This document shows, piece after piece, positions 34,729-44,993 of a DNA stretch of 64,000 nucleotides. Position 1 is the first letter of the stretch, and each line of letters starts with the position of its first letter. The notes below the pieces were generated by a model. It was given only the letters and a program-made list of their open reading frames with translations. It made no database searches and was not told the origin of the DNA. The DNA comes from an uncultured Acetatifactor sp. (GTDB lineage Bacteria; Bacillota; Clostridia; Lachnospirales; Lachnospiraceae), in NCBI GenBank assembly GCA_947595925.1, contig CANQEV010000009.1, positions 1-64,000 of the forward strand, in the 5' to 3' direction. The translations under genes and the position numbers were made by a program.

Positions 34729-34757
34729 AGTATAGTATTTTCCAAGGAAATTGTCAA
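34729..34757 (-). promoter_or_regulatory. Strong promoter of csp
   Basis: On the minus strand TTGACA (34752-34757) and TATACT (34729-34734) are 17 bases apart. Confidence 0.9.
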
Positions 34758-34924
34758 TCAGTATTTTCTCTGAAATAGCAAAAAAAGGAATAATTTTGAA
34801 AAAATATAGACAACCTCTTCGAATCTTTCCTGATTTTTTAATTGCCAGATGGTATATTTTGGGTGAAACTGTGAAAAATAGGATTGCAATTTATGGCAAG
34901 GCAATGCAAAGAAGGGGTGTGGTG

Positions 34925-35713
34925 ATGGGAGTGATGATTCCTTTGTGGTACGTGGTCTGCCTGGGGCTGGCGGCAGCTTATTTCGGCTTTTGGTTTGGCA
35001 GGAGCCGGAACTGGGGGATGATTGAAAAGATGGAGACGGAGAAAACGGCGGGGCCTGGCGGTCTGGAAAAGGGAGAAGCCGGATCTGACGGCCCGGGAAG
35101 AGTCCGCGGAGGATACGGTGAGGAAAAGGGCGGAGCGGGACACGGCGGTGAAAAAAGCCGGGCGAGAGCCGGGGCGGAGAAAGACAGGCTGGGGGGCAGT
35201 ACCGGCGCCGGGAAGAACGCTGGGCCCTATGCCGGGGACAGAAGGATAACGGTTTCCCGGGGCGGCGATAAATATTACGGAAAAAATTTATATTGTCCCA
35301 CGGCCGGCCGTGCCATGAATTTTCAGGAGGGGGAGGAAAACGGCGTGCGGATTTTGACGACGGACAGCAGGCTTTATTCACCGGTTTCCGGAAGGGTCCT
35401 GAAAATTTCTCCCCGGGGGAATGCGTTTTTGATCCGGACGGACTGGGGGCGGGACGTGACGGTGCGGGCCTGTACCAATGAGGATGATCTGCTGGACCGG
35501 TATTTTCGCCCGAGGGTGGTCCGGGGAGAGATCGTCCGCCGGGGAAGGCTCCTTCTGGAGTATGACCGGGAGACGCTCTGCAGAAAGTGCCAGGACACAG
35601 CCGTGTATGTCTCGGTGGGGGATGAGAGCGGGGGGAAACTGGAGGTGGAGGAGGATCTTTCTGTAAAGGTCGGGGATTCCCTCCGCTGGCTGCAGCCGGA
35701 AGATCCCTCTTGA
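34925..35713 (+). CDS. Membrane-anchored protein with PTS EIIA(Glc)-like domain
   Basis: A 262-residue protein. One N-terminal membrane helix (about 2-26) leads to a Gly/Lys/Arg/Glu-rich, probably disordered stretch (about 30-115), then a beta-sandwich resembling the glucose-specific EIIA domain: LYSPVSGRVLKISPRGNAFLIRTDWG, then VRGEIVRRGRLLLEYD. The phosphorylatable His of true EIIA (in an LIHIGLDT-type motif) is not present; DVTVRACTNEDD stands there instead. It is therefore unlikely to pass phosphate. AAGGGGTG sits just before ATG 34925. The copZ promoter begins inside its last codons. Confidence 0.65.
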   Translation: MGVMIPLWYVVCLGLAAAYFGFWFGRSRNWGMIEKMETEKTAGPGGLEKGEAGSDGPGRVRGGYGEEKGGAGHGGEKSRARAGAEKDRLGGSTGAGKNAGPYAGDRRITVSRGGDKYYGKNLYCPTAGRAMNFQEGEENGVRILTTDSRLYSPVSGRVLKISPRGNAFLIRTDWGRDVTVRACTNEDDLLDRYFRPRVVRGEIVRRGRLLLEYDRETLCRKCQDTAVYVSVGDESGGKLEVEEDLSVKVGDSLRWLQPEDPS

Positions 35714-36144: not shown

Positions 36145-36173
36145 TTGATTGTCCGCTTGGCTTTTAGTAAAAT
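36145..36173 (+). promoter_or_regulatory. Promoter of the LacI-EAL gene
   Basis: TTGATT (36145-36150) and TAAAAT (36168-36173) with 17-base spacing, 25 bases before the start codon. Confidence 0.75.
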
Positions 36174-36198: not shown

Positions 36199-39100
36199 AT
36201 GCTCGCGGGGAAAAGGGTATTGGGGCTTTGTGTGACAAAGATACACGACAAGACGAGGGCGGATCTGGCGGACAAGATCAATCATGCGGCCCTTGCAGCC
36301 GGTTTTAAGCTGGTGTGTTTTAACAGCTCGGAGGATTTTTATAAGGACAATGTGTACAGCATAGGCGCAAAGTCTTCCTATGACAGGATCGATTATTCTG
36401 TTGTGGATGGATTGATCCTGTGCGCGGAGCATTTTTACAGCGAGAGCGTGGTGAAAGAGCTCCTCTCCCGGGCAAAGGAGAACGGCGTGCCCGTTGTGGT
36501 CCTGAACGGAGAGGGGGAGGGCTGTTATCAGGTCCGAAGCGACTGCGAGGAGGCCTTCCGGGAGCTGATCCGTCATCTGATCCGGGATCATCATGTGAAA
36601 GATACCTTTTTCATTGCCGGACGACGGGAGAAGGATGCCAATTCCGCCCAGAGACTTCGGATCTACCGGGAAACGCTGGAGGAGTTTGGCCTTCCCTTCG
36701 ACGGAAGCCGGGTGGCTTTTGGGGAATACTGGGATGAGCCGGCCATGCGGATCACGCAGGAACTGGCCCATCTTGGCAGGATCCCGCAGGCGTTTATCTG
36801 TGCAAACGACAGCATGGCTTTCGGAGTGTGCCGTCAGCTGAAGGAACTGGGATACCGTGTCCCGGAGGACGTGATCGTCACCGGCTTTGACGGGATCCCG
36901 GCGGTAAGGTACCTGCTTCCCAGGCTTTCCACCTGCCGGGAAGACCTGCAGGGGCTGGCCGAAACCTGTGTGGACACCTTTGTGCAGATCTTTGAAGGCG
37001 GGGAGCCGGAAAAGGTAAGGAAGGTTCCTTACACGGCCGTGTTTTCAGAGTCCTGCGGCTGTGAGACGGTGACGGACCAGGAGAGCAGGCAGGCCGCGGC
37101 AGCTCTATATCAGCACATGGAGGAAACGGAGGCCCATGAGGATTATGTGGCTTCGGAGGTCAGCCATATGCTGAATATCGAGAACGTGGAGGAGATTTAT
37201 CAGCCTCTCTCAAAGCTGATCCTGGCCAATTCCACGTTCTGTCTGAACAGTGAATTCTTAAAGATCGCTTCCGGCAAGTCCGTGGAAGGGATTTCCGTGG
37301 CTGTGCCCTGTTATTATGACAGAAACCGCAGCGTGGGCTATCTGCCGGACAAGGAGATGCTTCCGGATGCCAAGGGCTTTGCTGAGGATGAGAGCTGCTA
37401 CATCATTACGGCAATCTATTCCAAGGACAAGGCCTGCGGTTACTATGCGGTGCGGACCGATGACGTGAATTCGGTTTATCATAAGATTAAAGTGATTCTG
37501 CGGTATGTGGACCTGGTGGTGGACTCCCTGATCATCCAGTTTAATCAGAAGAATATGATGTGGATCATGGAGAACGCGGGTTATATGGATTCCACCACGG
37601 GATTCGCCAATCTGAAAGGCGTGTCCAGGTGGTTTGAAGAGTTCGCAAAGGTTGCAAACAATCACCGGAAGACCCTGGCATTCTCTATTTACGCCCTTCC
37701 CAATTATACATACATATATGAAAATTACGGCCTCCGGGATATCGAGGAAGTGATGACGGCAGTGGCGGAAAGGCTGAGGGAGGTCAATCAGAAAGACTGT
37801 TTCCTGGCCAAAATTTCCGAGAGCGAATTCCTTGTGATAAATTATTTCGACGACCCCGAAGCTGTGTCGAGGACGATTCAGGGCGCTACCTCGGCATTTT
37901 ATCCACTGATCGAGGAGTACAACCGCAGCAGCGGCAAGGGCTATTATGTGGAGGTAAACGCGGGCTGTACTGTGGCGGACGCGGGCTGGGAAGAGGCGCT
38001 GGAGGTGTATATCAAGTGCGCGTCCGGTGAGCTTTTCCTGAACCGCTTAAAACAGGGCGCGTCCGAGACGGTGAAGGAGACTGTGTCCCATAAGGATTAT
38101 TACAGCGTGTTTAACCTGCTGGTGGACAATAATCTTTTTACCTATCATTTTCAGCCGATTGTGGACGCGAAGCTGGGGGAGATCTGCGCTTATGAGGCCC
38201 TGATGCGGACCTCCGGCGGCATCAATCTCTCTCCTCTGGACGTGCTGGACATCGCGAAAGAGTTCAAGCGTCTGAACGAGATCGAGCATGCCACCCTGTT
38301 CAACGTCATGAGACGGTACGCGGAGGAGTTTGAAAAGTTCCGTGGGAGGAAGGTCTTTATCAATACCATCCCCAATCATTTCCTCAGCAACGAGGAGTGC
38401 GATGAACTGATCTCAAAGTATAAGAGTTTCTTCGATTATTTTGTCTTTGAAGTGACGGAGCAGGAGACCAGTTCTGACGATGAGCTGAAAGCTATCAAGC
38501 GTCTCTGCGGCAGCAGCGGGGAGGTGCAGATCGCCGTGGACGATTATGGGACGGGGCATTCCAATATCGTGAATCTGCTGCGCTATGAGCCCCAGATCAT
38601 CAAGATCGACCGCTATCTCATCGACGGAATTGATTCGGACACCAATAAGCAGATGTTTGTGAAAAACACGATCGAGTTCGCCTCCATGAACAATATTAAG
38701 GTATTGGCGGAGGGCGTCGAGACTGTGGGAGAGCTGCGCACGGTGATCCAGTACGGCGTGGATTATATACAGGGGTATTATACGGGGCGTCCCGCGCCGG
38801 AACCCATCGATGCCATTGCGGAGAAAGTCCGGGAGGAGATCATCGACGAGAATCTCCGTCTGTCCAAATTTGACAACGACAGGCAGAAAGTGTACACTGC
38901 CCGCGACGGCGAAACGCTGAATCTGGTGAATCTCACCCTGGAAAAATACAATTATATCAACATTGTGTCCGGGGAGGTTACCCTTCTCGGAAAGAAAGAG
39001 TGCACGCTCAATATCATCACCAGGGTGGCGGACAACGCGAAGGCGCGTCTGATCCTGATGGATGCAAATTTAAGCGGCACGGATGAACCGGCCATTCAGC

Positions 39101-40065
39101 TGGGACAGGGCAGCAGCGTGGAGCTGGAGGTACGGGGCTTCAACACGATCACCAAGAACGGCATCTGGGTGACAAAGAATTCGGAACTTCGCCTGACGGG
39201 AGGCGGGTCCCTCCTGGTCAACACCAATCAGAATGATGGCGTGGGGATCGGTTCCAGATATGAGGAATCGTACGGCTCTATCATTCTGGAACACACCGGA
39301 AGGGTGAAGGTGATCTCCTCAGGGGATAAGGCGGTGAGCGTCGGCGGCGGCTACAGCAGCGGGGGCATTGAAATCCGCAGCGGAATCCTGGAGGTGGCGG
39401 GGTCCGGTATTTCGGTGATCGGCATCGGCAGTTCCATCGGGGACGCGGATATTCAGATCGGAAACGCGGAAGTCCTGGTGAAGGAGTCCGGAAACGAGGC
39501 CGTCGGAATCGGCACTGCCAGCGGCACGGCGAGGATCACGTCCCGGGGCAGGCTCAACGTGGTTTCCGACGGCGAGAGGTCGGTGGCCATCGGTTCCCTG
39601 AAGGGGAAGGATTGTCTTATGGAACTGGCTTCCGGTGAAATCTCGGCCGTGGTACACTGCGACATGGGCGCTGTGATCGGATCCTACAGCGGGAGCGTAA
39701 ACACAATCTGCGGAGAGTGCCGCGTAAAGGTTTATGGAGAAGGCGCCAATGTGACCGGCATGGGCAGCAGCATGGGGAACTGTGTCACGGAGATCCAGGG
39801 AGGCGTCCTGGAGATCAGGGTGCTCTCCGCCAACGCCCAGCCTTTCGGCAATGAGAACGATAAGGTGGTCATCACCGGAGGAAACGTGATGACCCCGGAC
39901 TGGGAGCAGGAGGTTCCCGCAGTAAACGCATACGGCCAGAAACTTCACAGGGAACTGCGGGAGGAGAAGACGTTCGAACAGCTGGTTCACACGTCCCATG
40001 GAGATTATATCTATCGGGCGGAACGCTGTGCGGAACCGGACCTGCTCAGCGTTTATCTGCCATAA
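36199..40065 (+). CDS. LacI-type sensor + degenerate GGDEF + EAL phosphodiesterase + C-terminal beta-helix
   Basis: A 1288-residue protein with no signal peptide or membrane helix. Residues 1-300 form a LacI/periplasmic-binding-type fold without a DNA-binding head (FICANDSMAFGVCRQL, VIVTGFDGIPA), ending in SESCGC. A GAF-like middle is followed by a degenerate GGDEF domain (about 460-600; SESEF replaces GGDEF). The EAL domain (about 640-890) keeps its key residues: EAL near 666, INTIPN, FEVTEQ, VDDYGTGHSN, IKIDRYLIDG, LAEGVET and YIQGYYTGRP, so cyclic-di-GMP hydrolysis is likely. Residues about 900-1245 are a glycine-rich beta-helix with seven VGIG-like turns. GGAGG precedes the ATG. Confidence 0.85.
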   Translation: MLAGKRVLGLCVTKIHDKTRADLADKINHAALAAGFKLVCFNSSEDFYKDNVYSIGAKSSYDRIDYSVVDGLILCAEHFYSESVVKELLSRAKENGVPVVVLNGEGEGCYQVRSDCEEAFRELIRHLIRDHHVKDTFFIAGRREKDANSAQRLRIYRETLEEFGLPFDGSRVAFGEYWDEPAMRITQELAHLGRIPQAFICANDSMAFGVCRQLKELGYRVPEDVIVTGFDGIPAVRYLLPRLSTCREDLQGLAETCVDTFVQIFEGGEPEKVRKVPYTAVFSESCGCETVTDQESRQAAAALYQHMEETEAHEDYVASEVSHMLNIENVEEIYQPLSKLILANSTFCLNSEFLKIASGKSVEGISVAVPCYYDRNRSVGYLPDKEMLPDAKGFAEDESCYIITAIYSKDKACGYYAVRTDDVNSVYHKIKVILRYVDLVVDSLIIQFNQKNMMWIMENAGYMDSTTGFANLKGVSRWFEEFAKVANNHRKTLAFSIYALPNYTYIYENYGLRDIEEVMTAVAERLREVNQKDCFLAKISESEFLVINYFDDPEAVSRTIQGATSAFYPLIEEYNRSSGKGYYVEVNAGCTVADAGWEEALEVYIKCASGELFLNRLKQGASETVKETVSHKDYYSVFNLLVDNNLFTYHFQPIVDAKLGEICAYEALMRTSGGINLSPLDVLDIAKEFKRLNEIEHATLFNVMRRYAEEFEKFRGRKVFINTIPNHFLSNEECDELISKYKSFFDYFVFEVTEQETSSDDELKAIKRLCGSSGEVQIAVDDYGTGHSNIVNLLRYEPQIIKIDRYLIDGIDSDTNKQMFVKNTIEFASMNNIKVLAEGVETVGELRTVIQYGVDYIQGYYTGRPAPEPIDAIAEKVREEIIDENLRLSKFDNDRQKVYTARDGETLNLVNLTLEKYNYINIVSGEVTLLGKKECTLNIITRVADNAKARLILMDANLSGTDEPAIQLGQGSSVELEVRGFNTITKNGIWVTKNSELRLTGGGSLLVNTNQNDGVGIGSRYEESYGSIILEHTGRVKVISSGDKAVSVGGGYSSGGIEIRSGILEVAGSGISVIGIGSSIGDADIQIGNAEVLVKESGNEAVGIGTASGTARITSRGRLNVVSDGERSVAIGSLKGKDCLMELASGEISAVVHCDMGAVIGSYSGSVNTICGECRVKVYGEGANVTGMGSSMGNCVTEIQGGVLEIRVLSANAQPFGNENDKVVITGGNVMTPDWEQEVPAVNAYGQKLHRELREEKTFEQLVHTSHGDYIYRAERCAEPDLLSVYLP

Positions 40066-40085: not shown

Positions 40086-40118
40086 TCCCTGCACATAATG
40101 CCGTGCAGGGATTTTTCT
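40086..40118 (+). terminator. Terminator of the LacI-EAL gene
   Basis: A perfect 9-bp stem (TCCCTGCAC/GTGCAGGGA) with an eight-base loop, followed by TTTTTCTT. Confidence 0.9.
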
Positions 40119-40296
40119 TGTGGGCCGGGATATTCTAAAGTTTATACTTTTTTAACACTTCTTTTAGAGTTTCTTTGTTGTGTTTTGAAAATACTGTGTT
40201 ATATTAGTTATAGAACAAATGAAAGATAATGACTTTCCGGGACGCAGGGCGGCGTCAGATGTCCTGCGGGACCCGGACGTAAAGGGGGCATGGCTT

Positions 40297-42885
40297 ATGA
40301 ATATTCAAAAATTTACGCAGAAATCCCTTCAGGCGGTGGAGGGATGCGAGAAGCTGGCGATGGAGTACGGGAACCAGGAGATCGAGCAGGAGCATCTCCT
40401 ATACAGTCTCCTCACCGTGGAGGACAGTCTGATCCTAAAGCTGATCGAAAAGATGGAGATCCAGAAGGAGCATTTCCAGAACCGCGTCCTTGAGGCGGTG
40501 GAAAAGCGGGTAAAGGTCCAGGGCGGGAACCCTTATATCGGCCAGTACCTGAACAAGACCCTGATCAATGCGGAGGACGAGGCAAAGCGGCTGGGGGACG
40601 AATATGTATCGGTGGAGCACCTGTTCCTTGCCATGCTGAACGCGCCCAATAAGGAGATCTCCGCGATCTTTCGGGAGTACGGCATTACAAAGGAGCGCTT
40701 TCTGCAGGCGCTTTCCACCGTCCGGGGCAATCAGAGGGTGACCAGCGATAATCCGGAAGCAACCTACGATACGCTTGAAAAATACGGGCAGGAGCTGGTG
40801 GAGAAGGCCAGGAATCAAAAGCTGGATCCGGTGATCGGCCGGGACAACGAGATCCGCAACGTCATCCGGATCCTGTCCCGGAAGACCAAGAACAACCCGG
40901 TGCTCATCGGGGAACCCGGCGTGGGCAAGACCGCCGTGGTGGAGGGACTGGCCCAGAGGATCGTCCGGGGCGACGTCCCCCAGGGCCTGAAGGACAAGAA
41001 GATCTTTGCCCTGGATATGGGCGCGCTGGTGGCCGGCGCGAAGTACCGGGGCGAGTTTGAGGAGAGGCTGAAGGCGGTTCTGGAAGACGTGAAGAACAGC
41101 GACGGCCAGATCATTCTCTTTATCGACGAGCTGCACACGATCGTGGGGGCCGGAAAGACGGACGGCGCCCTGGACGCGGGCAATATGTTAAAGCCCATGC
41201 TGGCCAGGGGGGAGCTCCACTGTATCGGGGCGACGACCCTGGACGAGTATCGTCAGTATATCGAGAAGGATCCCGCCCTGGAGAGAAGGTTCCAGCCCGT
41301 CATGGTGGACGAACCCACGGTGGAGGATACCATTTCCATCCTGCGGGGCATCAAGGAGCGCTATGAAGTCTATCACGGCGTGAAGATCATGGACAACGCG
41401 CTGGTCAGCGCGGCCACGCTCTCACACCGCTATATCACCGACCGTTTTCTCCCGGACAAGGCCATCGACCTGGTGGACGAGGCCTGTGCCCTGATCAAAA
41501 CGGAACTGGACAGCATGCCCTCGGAGCTGGACGAGATGTCCCGGAAGATCATGCAGATGGAGATCGAGGAGGCGGCTCTGAAGAAAGAGGACGACAGGCT
41601 CAGTCAGGAACGGCTGGAGGAGCTGCAGAAAGATCTTGCGGAGTGGAAAGCCCGCTTTTCTGAAAAGAAAGCCCAGTGGGACAATGAGAAAGCGTCGGTG
41701 GAACGCCTGAGCAGACTGCGGGAGGAGATCGATCAGGTCAACTCGGACATCCAGGTGGCCCAGCGGGAGGGGAATCTGGAGAAAGCGGCGGAGCTCAGCT
41801 ACGGAAAGCTGCCCTCCCTGAAAAAGCAGCTGGAGCAGGAGGAAGAGAAGGTGGGAAGCGCCGGGCTTTCCCTGGTGCATGAGAAGGTCTCCGAGGAGGA
41901 GATTTCCAAGATCGTCAGCCGTTGGACCGGCATCCCCGTGACGAAGCTGACGGAGAGCGAGCGCAGCAAGACCCTGCACCTGGACGAAGAACTGCACAGA
42001 AGGGTCATCGGCCAGGACGAGGGCGTGGAGAAGGTATCCGAGGCCATCATCCGCTCAAAGGCCGGCATCAAGGATCCGTCCAAGCCCATCGGTTCCTTCC
42101 TGTTCCTGGGGCCCACCGGCGTGGGCAAGACGGAGCTGGCAAAGGCCCTGGCGGCAAGTCTCTTTGACGATGAGGGCAATATGGTGAGACTGGATATGAG
42201 CGAATATATGGAAAAGCACTCCGTTTCCAGACTGATCGGAGCGCCTCCCGGATACGTGGGCTACGAGGAGGGCGGCCAGCTCACCGAGGCGGTCCGCAGG
42301 AAGCCATATTGCGTGGTCCTCTTTGACGAGGTGGAGAAGGCCCATCCCGATGTGTTTAATGTATTATTGCAGGTTCTGGACGACGGGCGGATCACCGATT
42401 CCCAGGGCAGGACGGTGGACTTTAAGAACACCATCCTGATCATGACCTCCAATATCGGTGCCCAGTACCTTCTGGACGGCATCCGGGAGGACGGCAGCAT
42501 ACGGCCCGAGGCGGAGGAGGCGGTCATGAACGATTTGAGGGCCCATTTCCGGCCGGAGTTTCTGAACCGGCTGGACGAGACGATCCTGTTTAAGCCTCTG
42601 ACCCGGGAGAACATCGGCGGGATCATCGATCTGCAGATGCAGGACGTGAACAGAAGGCTGCAGGATAAGCAGCTCAGCATAGAGCTGGACGAGGATGCAA
42701 AGCGGTTCATCGCGGAGAATTCCTACGATCCCGTCTATGGCGCAAGGCCCTTAAAGCGGTATCTGCAAAAGAACGTGGAGACGCTGGCGGCAAAGCTGAT
42801 TCTCTCCGGCGGGGTCGGCGCGGAGGACGTGATCCGGATCTCTCTGGAGAACGGAGAGCTGAAAGCCAGTGTAAAAAAACTGTGA
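40297..42885 (+). CDS. clpB: Disaggregase ClpB
   Basis: An 862-residue ClpB, full length. The N-terminal repeat domain (1-150) is followed by AAA-1 with Walker A GEPGVGKT (near 205), the long coiled-coil middle domain (about 395-515), and AAA-2 with Walker A GPTGVGKT (near 605) and pore loop GYVGYEEGG. It rescues aggregated proteins with DnaK. AAAGGGGG upstream sets ATG 40297; the frame open to 40219 has no better site. It is monocistronic and lies between the two cyclic-di-GMP genes. No CIRCE or CtsR box was found upstream. Confidence 0.97.
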
Positions 42886-42905
42886 CAGAAGAACAAAATG
42901 TGGGA

Positions 42906-42953
42906 AATGGCGGTCAGATTTGCAAATTTGACCGCCATTTTAGCAATTTTTAT
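42906..42953 (+). terminator. Terminator of clpB
   Basis: An 11-bp stem (AATGGCGGTCA/TGACCGCCATT) with a twelve-base loop is followed by TTAGCAATTTTT. Confidence 0.85.
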
Positions 42954-43127
42954 TAGATTTAAGCAATATATCACTTTTTTTTTTGTGCGAAAGGCATTAT
43001 AATAAATACGATGTAGGTAGTGGCATGTGAATGATTCTATGCGGATATGCAGTGAGGCCCGGGAAACGGATGCGCAGTTTTGCCGGGTGATATCGCATGC
43101 TTTGAGATGAGACGGATGAGGAGACGG

Positions 43128-44993
43128 ATGGTTAAAAAGATTGCTGCTTTTATCGGACAACTTACGCAGGAATATCAATCGGAGATGATCCGGGCGGTGA
43201 TCGACACCGCGAAGGAACTGGGCTACCGGATAGATATTTTCAGCGAATTCGGCTCCTATGGAGAGAATTACCTGCATGCGGAGGGCGAGAGGAACATCAT
43301 CAATCTGCCCTATATAGAGGATTATGCAGGAATCCTTGTCGCGCCGGATACCTTCGGCGTGAAGGAGATGGAGAAACAGCTGGACGTGCTGCTTCTCAGA
43401 AACGCGAAGGTTCCCATCGTCAGTCTCCGCCAGGAAAAGGAATGTTATTACAGCGTGCAGGTGGATAACCAGGCGTCCATGGAGAGCATGGTGGAGCATT
43501 TCGTGGCGGAACACGGAATGAGAAGAGTCTGTTTTATGAAGGGACGCGTGGATCTGAAGGACGCGGAAGAGCGCTACCAGGGGTATCTGAACGTGATGGC
43601 CCGGCATGGCCTCCCGGTGACGGAGCACATGGTCTTTCAGGGAGATTACTGGAGGGACAAAGGGCCCGCGGCGGTGGACTGGTTCCTGTCGGGTTCGGAG
43701 AGACCCGAGGCCATCGTCTGCGCCAACGATTTTATGGCGATCTCGGTCCTGGGAGAGCTGAAGGCCAGGGGCGTGAAGGTCCCGGAGGAGATCGCGGTGT
43801 CGGGCTTTGACGACCTGGAAGAATCCAAGTATGTGGAGCCCGCCCTGAGCAGCGTGCATGTGCCGAGTCTGACCATGGGCCGGGAGGCGGTGCTGTTGAT
43901 AGACAAACTCCTCAGAGGGGGGACTTCCGAACAGGTGGTAAGGCTCCCGGTGGAGATCGCGTTCCGCAGAAGCTGCGGCTGCGGCGAAAGCGAGGCGGGC
44001 CGCTGGACGGAGAAGCTGTACCGGGAAAAGCTCTATCTGACGAATGTATTGGTACAGAACGGATTTATGAACGCGGACTTTGACAACTGCGACAATCTGG
44101 AGGAACTTCTGAATATCTCCTGCCAGTATTCCCTGAATTTCCCTTACGCTGCGCTGTATTTCTGCCTGTGTGACGTCATGGACGAGAACGGCGAACGGCT
44201 GCAGGATCAGACGAAATATACGGAGTATGTGACGCTCCGGGCGATCATGAGCCGGGAGAAGGGACTGGAACTGATGGACGAGAGATTTCCGCGCCGTCAG
44301 ATCCTGCCGGAGAAGTACCGCCCGAGGGATAAGGCGTTGTACTTTTTCCCGCTGCATCACAAAAACCACTGTCTGGGGTATCTTGCCATCGACACGGACC
44401 GGCAGGAAGAGCTGAAGGATTTCTTCCAGTGCTGGACCCGGGAGACCTGCAGCTATATGGATAAGATCCTGCTGTATGAGGAGAACCAGAGCCTTCAGGA
44501 ATTCCGCAAACTGTCTACCGTGGACGATCTGACAGGACTGTTTAACCGCCGGAAAATGGAACAGGAGCTGAGTAAGATCCTGGCGCCGTTGAAGGTACGG
44601 GACGTAAAGTTCTTTGTGGTCAGCCTGGATATGGACGGCCTGAAAGCCATCAACGATACTTACGGACATCTGGAAGGGGATTGCGCGCTCCGGGATTACG
44701 CCGGCATTCTGAAAAAAGCGGCGGGGGAGGACGGACTCTGCTGCCGGATGGGAGGAGACGAGTTTTCCATACTTGTTCCCACGGAAAAAGAAGAGGTCGT
44801 GAAAGCGCTGCTGGACAGGATCCGGGAAGGCGTGGCGGAGTACAACCGGACGTCGGATAAACCCTATCAGATGAGCGGGAGCATGGGCTACGCGGAGTTT
44901 CGGAAAGAGGAAGAACTGACCAACTGCCTGCGCCGCGCGGATATCAATATGTACGCCGACAAGATGGCGCGCAAGAAGGGGAGAAAGAACTGA
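43128..44993 (+). CDS. LacI-type sensor fused to a diguanylate cyclase (GGDEF)
   Basis: A 621-residue cytoplasmic protein. Residues 1-285 form a headless LacI/periplasmic-binding-type sensor (CFMKGRVDLKDAEERYQGYL, IVCANDFMAISVLGELK, VSGFDDLEESKY), ending RRSCGCGESE. A middle helical/GAF-like domain (about 300-440) leads to an intact GGDEF domain (about 455-620): DDLTGLFNRRKM, SLDMDGLKAINDTYGH and RMGGDEFSILVP. It should make cyclic-di-GMP. The inhibitory RxxD site just before GGDEF is absent. AGGAG six bases before ATG 43128 fixes the start. It begins a run of surface-related genes and mirrors the EAL gene on the other side of clpB. Confidence 0.9.
   Translation: MVKKIAAFIGQLTQEYQSEMIRAVIDTAKELGYRIDIFSEFGSYGENYLHAEGERNIINLPYIEDYAGILVAPDTFGVKEMEKQLDVLLLRNAKVPIVSLRQEKECYYSVQVDNQASMESMVEHFVAEHGMRRVCFMKGRVDLKDAEERYQGYLNVMARHGLPVTEHMVFQGDYWRDKGPAAVDWFLSGSERPEAIVCANDFMAISVLGELKARGVKVPEEIAVSGFDDLEESKYVEPALSSVHVPSLTMGREAVLLIDKLLRGGTSEQVVRLPVEIAFRRSCGCGESEAGRWTEKLYREKLYLTNVLVQNGFMNADFDNCDNLEELLNISCQYSLNFPYAALYFCLCDVMDENGERLQDQTKYTEYVTLRAIMSREKGLELMDERFPRRQILPEKYRPRDKALYFFPLHHKNHCLGYLAIDTDRQEELKDFFQCWTRETCSYMDKILLYEENQSLQEFRKLSTVDDLTGLFNRRKMEQELSKILAPLKVRDVKFFVVSLDMDGLKAINDTYGHLEGDCALRDYAGILKKAAGEDGLCCRMGGDEFSILVPTEKEEVVKALLDRIREGVAEYNRTSDKPYQMSGSMGYAEFRKEEELTNCLRRADINMYADKMARKKGRKN

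What the first reader, a model, noticed from the sequence alone, without database searches (positions are those of the whole stretch)
36199..40065. Cytoplasmic LacI-sensor/EAL protein with a C-terminal glycine-rich beta-helix
Four parts are visible in one 1288-residue chain: headless LacI-type sensor, dead GGDEF (SESEF), EAL with all catalytic residues, and about 345 residues with seven VGIG-type turns about 25-30 residues apart. Similar beta-helix repeats normally occur in secreted, sugar-binding proteins, yet there is no signal peptide or membrane helix here. The combination suggests a soluble cyclic-di-GMP hydrolase with a sugar sensor at one end and a polymer- or carbohydrate-binding module at the other. 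I know of sensor-EAL fusions but not of this tail on one.
Basis: partly seen in the sequence, partly recalled or inferred. Interest (0 to 1): 0.75.

Follow-up and report, generated by a model that had tools for sequence, protein, structure and literature searches.

The report
c-di-GMP phosphodiesterase with β-solenoid tail
An enzyme from a relative of gut and rumen bacteria that probably destroys the signal molecule cyclic-di-GMP carries a sugar-type sensor at its front and, at its back, a spiral domain akin to secreted proteins; this enzyme-plus-spiral unit recurs with many different front ends in related bacteria, and its role is unknown.

Summary
The ORF at 36199-40065 (+) encodes 1288 residues: a LacI-type sensor without DNA-binding domain, a degenerate GGDEF (SESEF), an EAL domain with all eight expected catalytic residues, and a strand-rich C-terminal tail, very probably a β-helix (AlphaFold2 block pLDDT 82-97 over residues 898-1197), akin to Clostridial β-helix proteins (hhalign 98.9%).

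It is not a one-off. I collected 61 proteins with complete EAL and tail; in 61 of 61 the tail stands directly behind EAL. Front ends vary: LacI sensor (32), GNAT (7), 4-5 hydrophobic segments + GGDEF (7), two hydrophobic segments (3), other soluble (12). EAL and tail distances correlate; the tail is under purifying selection and of near-fixed length, yet 7 of the 14 nearest N-terminal homologues lack it or keep only its start.

Best reading: a cytosolic c-di-GMP phosphodiesterase gated by a small-molecule sensor, with a co-opted β-solenoid as docking/assembly module. PDE chemistry is well supported by sequence; the tail's role is inference. New variant of a known kind; my paper searches found no description.

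The parts
36199..40065 (+). Whole gene: LacI-type sensor / GGDEF* / EAL / β-solenoid protein, 1288 aa
   Evidence: ORF, translation; full-length homologues in 4 of 60 other genomes of the first relatives search, 37-94% identity; promoter-like site 36145-36173 (such sites: 8 found, 5.2 expected) and GGAGG upstream
36199..37068 (+). LacI-type periplasmic-binding-protein-like sensor without helix-turn-helix (residues 1-290)
   Evidence: Pfam Peripla_BP_3/1/4; PDB sequence matches to CcpA, PurR, LacI
37573..38058 (+). Degenerate GGDEF domain (residues 459-620), signature SESEF at 37816-37830
   Evidence: Pfam GGDEF 30 bits; SESEF or SENEF in 12 of the 13 long-tailed LacI members of the genus, the 13th reads ADDSF
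38104..38796 (+). EAL domain (residues 636-866), predicted active c-di-GMP phosphodiesterase
   Evidence: Pfam EAL E 5.4e-46; catalytic residues aligned to solved EAL proteins; Foldseek to DosP, MorA, RocR and others
38797..38886 (+). Linker between EAL and tail (residues 867-896), partly helical; natural tail-less homologues end within it
   Evidence: helix in the model; six homologues stop 21-29 aa after the EAL profile end
38887..39903 (+). β-solenoid tail (residues 897-1235), seven G-I-G-type turns
   Evidence: block pLDDT 82-97 for 898-1197; turn spacing; kinship to secreted-type β-helices
39904..40062 (+). C-terminal extension of the tail (residues 1236-1288), in the long-tailed LacI members and the two-TM group
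   Evidence: length after EAL 418-434 aa in 16 proteins against 366-395 aa in 45; pLDDT below 50 from residue 1228
34751..35713 (+). Upstream neighbour with EIIA(Glc)-like domain, without histidines at the usual active-site places (recalled)
   Evidence: Pfam PTS_EIIA_1; found upstream in 9 of 11 named LacI-group loci; alignment
40219..42885 (+). Downstream neighbour clpB
   Evidence: Pfam; downstream in 10 of 11 named LacI-group loci, the 11th contig ends at the gene
43080..44993 (+). Diguanylate cyclase with a LacI-type sensor of its own (intact GGDEF), partner beyond clpB
   Evidence: Pfam Peripla_BP_3 + GGDEF; present in 8 of 11 named loci, the other 3 contigs end first

Best explanation
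A soluble cyclic-di-GMP phosphodiesterase. A cytosolic small ligand (probably a sugar or sugar derivative, by analogy with LacI-family sensors) closes the N-terminal two-lobed sensor; the change passes through the linker and the dead GGDEF domain to the EAL domain and changes its rate of c-di-GMP hydrolysis. The C-terminal β-solenoid, akin to secreted β-helix proteins, was joined to an ancestral EAL domain and kept as part of the enzyme while front ends were exchanged. It works as a rigid docking or self-assembly surface that places or clusters the phosphodiesterase (or sets its oligomer state), not as a conserved sugar-binding site. Shown here: anatomy, strand-rich repeat tail, EAL-tail linkage, correlated divergence, purifying selection, repeated natural loss or truncation. 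Inferred: catalysis, ligand, direction of regulation, and the docking/assembly role of the tail.
For: Domains and catalytic residues. Tail prediction and kinship to β-helix proteins. In 61 of 61 proteins the tail profile, which includes the last residues of EAL, begins 7-10 residues before the EAL profile ends, i.e. the tail follows EAL directly. Front ends vary: LacI 32, GNAT 7, 4-5 hydrophobic segments + GGDEF 7, two hydrophobic segments 3, other soluble 12; at least 9 changes of front-end class on the first EAL tree. EAL and tail distances correlate (r 0.77 over 53 non-redundant proteins; 0.84 over the 28 without a LacI sensor). Length after EAL is nearly fixed: 366-395 aa in 45, 418-434 aa in 16. 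dN/dS of the tail 0.097 against 0.090 for the sensor and 0.046 for EAL (window vs its 94% homologue). Conserved columns are mostly structural. The window genome has 14 GGDEF matches (this protein's own included) and 2 PilZ matches, so a c-di-GMP network exists. A LacI-sensor cyclase lies beyond clpB in 8 of the 8 named loci long enough to show it.
Against: No experiment. No interface, oligomer or partner was predicted; a tail-only model and its fold search could not be obtained. The tail is dispensable in nature: of 14 rows with E<=1e-90 to residues 1-882 in 397 genomes (at most two candidates per genome were scored), 7 lack it or keep only its start. Within LacI proteins the tail follows the LacI sensor (r 0.84) nearly as well as EAL (0.88), so there the whole protein is inherited together. 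Lack of family-wide polar patches does not exclude a ligand site in the LacI group, whose tails are 54-92% identical to the window's and share many polar residues. Cytosolic location rests on hydropathy and on EAL needing the cytosol.
Confidence: 0.5

Rival explanations
1. The tail is an intracellular carbohydrate- or polymer-binding domain: the enzyme reads a storage or nascent polysaccharide at one end and a soluble sugar at the other.
For: Tail kin to Beta_helix_3/Cthe_2159-type proteins; Cthe_2159 proteins bind cellulose and polygalacturonate according to PMC6712302 (passages); sugar-related neighbours: EIIA-like gene, PTS EIIC-EAL gene beside two GNAT-type members.
Against: PF14262 is below its cut-off (12.0 of 25.8 bits; 3 of 11 tails match at E<=1, best 0.0032). 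Few polar or aromatic columns are conserved over 61 tails.
Confidence: 0.2
2. The tail is an allosteric lid or spacer acting only within the protein: it packs on the EAL dimer and sets basal activity, with no outside partner.
For: Strict adjacency to EAL, correlated divergence, fixed length; conserved non-glycine residues include the linker and N-cap next to EAL (E880, I881, K897, Y899, L909, L912, Y917).
Against: Repeated natural loss with the rest of the enzyme intact; a roughly 300-residue solenoid is large for a lid.
Confidence: 0.2
3. The tail is a dispensable hitchhiker from a gene fusion, without function.
For: Absent or truncated in 7 of the 14 closest N-terminal homologues found.
Against: Purifying selection like that of the sensor, retention in 21 of 334 sampled genera and in a second family of the class, fixed length.
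Confidence: 0.07

Closest known systems
Composite GGDEF-EAL proteins (MorA, DosP, PA0861, PA0575)
   Same: GGDEF followed by EAL; among the best Foldseek and sequence matches.
   Different: No β-solenoid behind EAL is named in the 50 Foldseek rows shown; their sensors are PAS or other domains (partly recalled).
PBP-clan sensors in c-di-GMP enzymes such as RmcA (review PMC8846402: section 10 read, passages)
   Same: Two-lobed ligand sensor wired to GGDEF/EAL; the review says Periplas_BP domains, also found in LacI regulators, may bind sugars.
   Different: The review describes PBP-clan domains as periplasmic with a TM linker; here the sensor is LacI-like with no membrane segment, and there is a C-terminal tail.
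Cthe_2159 (PF14262) and Beta_helix_3 (PF18889) proteins
   Same: G-I-G-turn repeats; profile-profile kinship to such proteins.
   Different: Fused to EAL, no export signal by hydropathy, below the family cut-offs, near-fixed length, no PDB sequence match up to E 10.
LacI/CcpA/PurR effector domains
   Same: Effector-domain family.
   Different: No DNA-binding domain; output is EAL.
Bactofilins and other cytosolic β-solenoids (recalled, not tested)
   Same: Cytosolic β-solenoid that could stack end to end.
   Different: No sequence link tested or seen.

Membership tests
EAL-type c-di-GMP phosphodiesterase | EAL domain above curated cut-off | tested here: met
   157.3 bits against 31.3
EAL-type c-di-GMP phosphodiesterase | Metal- and substrate-binding residues (E, N, E, D, D, K, E, Q; roles recalled) | tested here: met
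   E666, N722, E754, D781, D782, K802, E838, Q858
EAL-type c-di-GMP phosphodiesterase | Hydrolysis of c-di-GMP to pGpG | not testable with these tools
   needs enzyme assay
GGDEF diguanylate cyclase | GG(D/E)EF active-site signature | tested here: not met
   SESEF at residues 540-544
LacI-family transcription factor | N-terminal helix-turn-helix DNA-binding domain | tested here: not met
   No HTH match among 7 Pfam matches up to E 1; PDB matches begin past the repressors' HTH
LacI-family transcription factor | PBP-like effector domain | tested here: met
   Peripla_BP_3 75.2 bits against 26.5
Cthe_2159 (PF14262) | Match above Pfam gathering score | tested here: not met
   12.0 bits against 25.8; best E 0.0032 among 11 tails
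Cthe_2159 (PF14262) | β-helix fold | tested here: inconclusive
   Strand-rich model with pLDDT 82-97 for 898-1197 and homology to β-helix families, but no coordinates seen and no fold search of the tail alone
Cthe_2159 (PF14262) | Secreted or surface protein | tested here: not met
   No signal-peptide-like or TM segment by hydropathy; fused to EAL
Cthe_2159 (PF14262) | Binds polygalacturonate or cellulose | not testable with these tools
   needs binding assay
Beta_helix_3 (PF18889) | Match to the Pfam repeat model | tested here: not met
   Not among the matches of P0001 nor of 11 tails up to E 1; it does match 4 of 5 secreted-type relatives

The most novel reading that the evidence does not exclude
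An adhesin-type β-solenoid has been taken into the cytosol and made into a dedicated accessory domain of c-di-GMP phosphodiesterases, where it assembles or docks the enzymes into local signalling clusters; front-end sensors are exchanged around this fixed EAL-solenoid core. This would be a new, lineage-specific way of localising c-di-GMP degradation.
Probability: 0.3. Interest if true: 0.75.

Novelty: new variant of a known kind. Interest (0 to 1): 0.55.

Why it matters
c-di-GMP enzymes are usually told apart by what lies in front of the GGDEF/EAL core (general knowledge). Here a large, conserved module sits behind EAL in 61 of 61 collected members whatever the front end, and natural tail-less homologues exist, even in the same genomes, which gives ready-made comparisons. 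If the tail localises or assembles the enzyme, it offers a tractable example of how local c-di-GMP pools are made in gut and rumen Lachnospiraceae, where c-di-GMP signalling seems little studied (my impression; one search listed 2 papers, neither on this). It would also show a secreted-type β-helix reused inside the cell.

Tried and rejected
Tail as unique to this protein: rejected. Tail as chance repeats: rejected. One gain of the tail with few losses: the first EAL tree (79 rows, 18 of them tail-less: G356 plus 17 mostly distant EALs) needed 3 changes, 2 forced; with the nearest tail-less homologues added the count rose to 7 changes, 3 forced by starred branches, so repeated loss (or gain) is the better statement. 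Both are quick trees with many weak forks and cannot tell gain from loss.

Operon with clpB and the cyclase: not supported. An inverted repeat followed by T's lies behind the gene (about 40086-40117, read; the scanner listed it on the minus strand only) and another behind clpB at 42904-42941; terminator-like sites overall were no more frequent than in shuffles (7 against 7.5). Synteny is conserved, co-transcription is not shown.

Conserved neighbours for the other architectures: 169 neighbouring ORFs of 48 loci, many with short flanks, gave no family shared by more than 3 loci. c-di-GMP-I riboswitch: no match, but the control genomes did not ring either, so nothing is concluded. Viral contigs: no relative of the LacI-group tails. 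PDB sequence search with the tail profile: nothing up to E 10. NCBIfam with the tails: nothing convincing. Fold search of the multidomain model showed only EAL/GGDEF structures in the 50 rows printed, so it says nothing about the tail.

Rows dropped: G135 and G431 (contig-cut) and weak matches such as G085 are not in the set of 61. L112 is in the set although its front is cut by the contig end.
Full report
WHAT IS THERE. The ORF 36199-40065 (+) encodes 1288 residues exactly as reported. Pfam gives Peripla_BP_3 (125-286), GGDEF (462-609), EAL (642-865) and a sub-threshold Cthe_2159 match at 925-1101. The 60 PDB sequence matches shown (of 108) are EAL or GGDEF-EAL proteins and LacI-family effector domains. 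The GGDEF signature is SESEF, so cyclase activity is not expected. The EAL domain keeps E666, N722, E754, D781, D782, K802, E838, Q858 (roles recalled). Seven G-I-G-type turns lie 27-31 residues apart; 0 of 2000 shuffles of the tail give seven.

FOLD. AlphaFold2 on residues 448-1288 with 12 sequences (window plus the 11 loci) gave mean pLDDT 78.6, pTM 0.55. For residues 898-1197 every ten-residue block mean is 82-97; most EAL blocks are 61-90; from residue 1228 on they are below 50. The tail is predicted as long runs of strands, as expected of a β-solenoid. I saw no coordinates or PAE, and a tail-only model and its fold search could not be obtained.

ORIGIN OF THE TAIL. A profile of 11 tails also finds, weakly, β-helix proteins of other Clostridia, several with signal-peptide-like starts read by eye (best E 1e-16 for such a protein in a scan of 30 loci). 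Profile-profile comparison of the tails with five of these gives probability 98.9%, E 3.2e-17 over 142 columns; the five had been picked by the tail profile, and shared glycine-rich repeats can inflate such scores. Of the five, four match Pfam Beta_helix_3 and one Cthe_2159. So the tail most likely comes from the secreted β-helix stock, but it is below the cut-off of either Pfam family.

HOW WIDESPREAD. With the tail profile: 29 of 138 genomes of the genus (own included) at E<=1e-3, of which 28 carry strong matches (32 rows, 4 genomes with two copies) and one (G085) only a weak one; 25 of 397 genomes of the family at E<=1e-20, in 21 of 334 genera; 26 of 295 genomes of the order at E<=1e-3, of which three (window, G076, G165) are full matches; the others cover at most about half of the profile, and those that I could classify are secreted-type β-helix proteins, a flagellin, or EAL ends; 3 of 398 genomes of the phylum at E<=1e-12, one of them (G1128) in another family of the class. 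The 11 named loci with the LacI version come from MAGs titled Acetatifactor or Lachnospiraceae, several from rumen.

ARCHITECTURE. I collected 61 proteins with complete EAL and tail (31 from the genus, 2 from G165, 27 from other genera of the family, 1 from G1128). In 61 of 61 an EAL domain stands directly before the tail. Front ends by profile and hydropathy: LacI 32 (23 with a GGDEF match, 9 without), GNAT 7, four to five hydrophobic segments plus GGDEF 7, two hydrophobic segments 3, other soluble 12. Pfam on nine representatives, none of the two-segment class, agrees. I saw no strong tail match without EAL; in G135 the contig begins inside the tail, so what precedes it is unknown.

EAL-TAIL UNIT. 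Length after EAL is 366-395 aa in 45 and 418-434 aa in 16 proteins (the longer ones have a C-terminal extension). EAL and tail distances correlate with r 0.77 over 53 non-redundant proteins and 0.84 over 28 without LacI sensor; within 25 LacI proteins the tail follows EAL (r 0.88) about as well as LacI (0.84). Between the window and its closest homologue dN/dS is 0.046 for EAL, 0.090 for the sensor and 0.097 for the tail.

NATURAL TAIL LOSS. A search with residues 1-882 in 397 family genomes (at most two candidates scored per genome) gave 14 rows at E<=1e-90 in 11 genomes: seven are tailed (1236-1289 aa frames, the window's included) and seven are not (909-1030 aa). Six of the seven stop 21-29 residues after the EAL profile; the seventh (G429) keeps about the first third of the tail, and the rest is not found in the roughly 0.7 kb held downstream. 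In G464, when stops are written as X, a weak tail match runs on to profile position 68, perhaps a decayed remnant. G759, G464 and G537 hold both kinds. On a quick EAL tree of 73 rows the tail label needs 7 changes, 3 forced by starred branches, against 11.3 in shuffles. The tail is therefore kept in many lines but not required.

NEIGHBOURHOOD. In the 11 named LacI-group loci the order SPFH - ABC - ABC - EIIA-like - this gene - clpB - LacI-sensor GGDEF cyclase recurs: the SPFH and ABC genes upstream in 10 of 11 (not in L130, the closest relative), the EIIA-like gene in 9 of 11, clpB downstream in 10 of 11 (the other contig ends at the gene), the cyclase in 8 of 11 (the other three contigs end first). 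The more distant G002 homologue (37% identity) shows none of these neighbours. The EIIA-like domain shows no histidine at the usual active-site places (places recalled). A review reports that EIIA(Glc) modulates the phosphodiesterase PdeS in Vibrio cholerae (PMC8846402, passage); whether anything alike happens here is speculation. Terminator-like repeats behind the gene and behind clpB argue against one operon.

FUNCTION. Shown: anatomy, predicted strand-rich repeat tail, linkage, selection, loss. Following from family knowledge: c-di-GMP hydrolysis by EAL; ligand sensing by the LacI-like domain. Inferred: the tail as docking or assembly surface. The carbohydrate reading is not excluded but has no positive support beyond kinship and sugar-related neighbours: over 61 tails only E880, N885, K897, Y899, Y917, D945, N982, S995 and E1181 are polar or aromatic columns conserved in 60% or more behind EAL, the rest being glycine, aliphatic or proline.

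LITERATURE. Searches with Cthe_2159 (7 papers), EAL + beta-helix + cyclic di-GMP + phosphodiesterase + Lachnospiraceae, any four (4 papers), EAL + beta-solenoid + c-di-GMP (none), EAL + right-handed + beta-helix (none), EAL + carbohydrate-binding domain + architecture (none), c-di-GMP with LacI and Lachnospiraceae terms (20 of 56 shown), cyclic di-GMP + Lachnospiraceae (2 papers) showed no paper whose title or abstract start describes this architecture. Of these papers I read passages of two and one section of one. The library lacks most subscription journals and holds no preprints.

Noticed in passing
L097:721-3267 (G322, another family of the order): A flagellin (Flagellin_N and Flagellin_C) whose middle part matches Beta_helix_3, with GAGIGGG turns; it was found as a weak match of the tail profile.
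   Followed up: partly
window 34751-35713: EIIA(Glc)-like domain without histidines at the usual places, with an N-terminal hydrophobic stretch read by eye, upstream of the LacI-group phosphodiesterase genes in 9 of 11 named loci.
   Followed up: partly
L103:5903-8026 and L105:1-1890: PTS EIIC-EAL fusion genes directly beside GNAT-GGDEF-EAL-tail genes.
   Followed up: partly
L103, L105, L113, L115, L123, L125, L169: GNAT acetyltransferase domains at the front of EAL-tail proteins (Pfam on L105 and L115); whether they acetylate or only sense acyl-CoA is open.
   Followed up: no
window 43080-44993: LacI-sensor diguanylate cyclase with intact GGDEF, one of several sensor-GGDEF paralogues in this genome.
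   Followed up: partly
window 40219-42885: The clpB ORF may start later: an in-frame ATG at 40297, 26 codons on, precedes the ClpB-like sequence.
   Followed up: no
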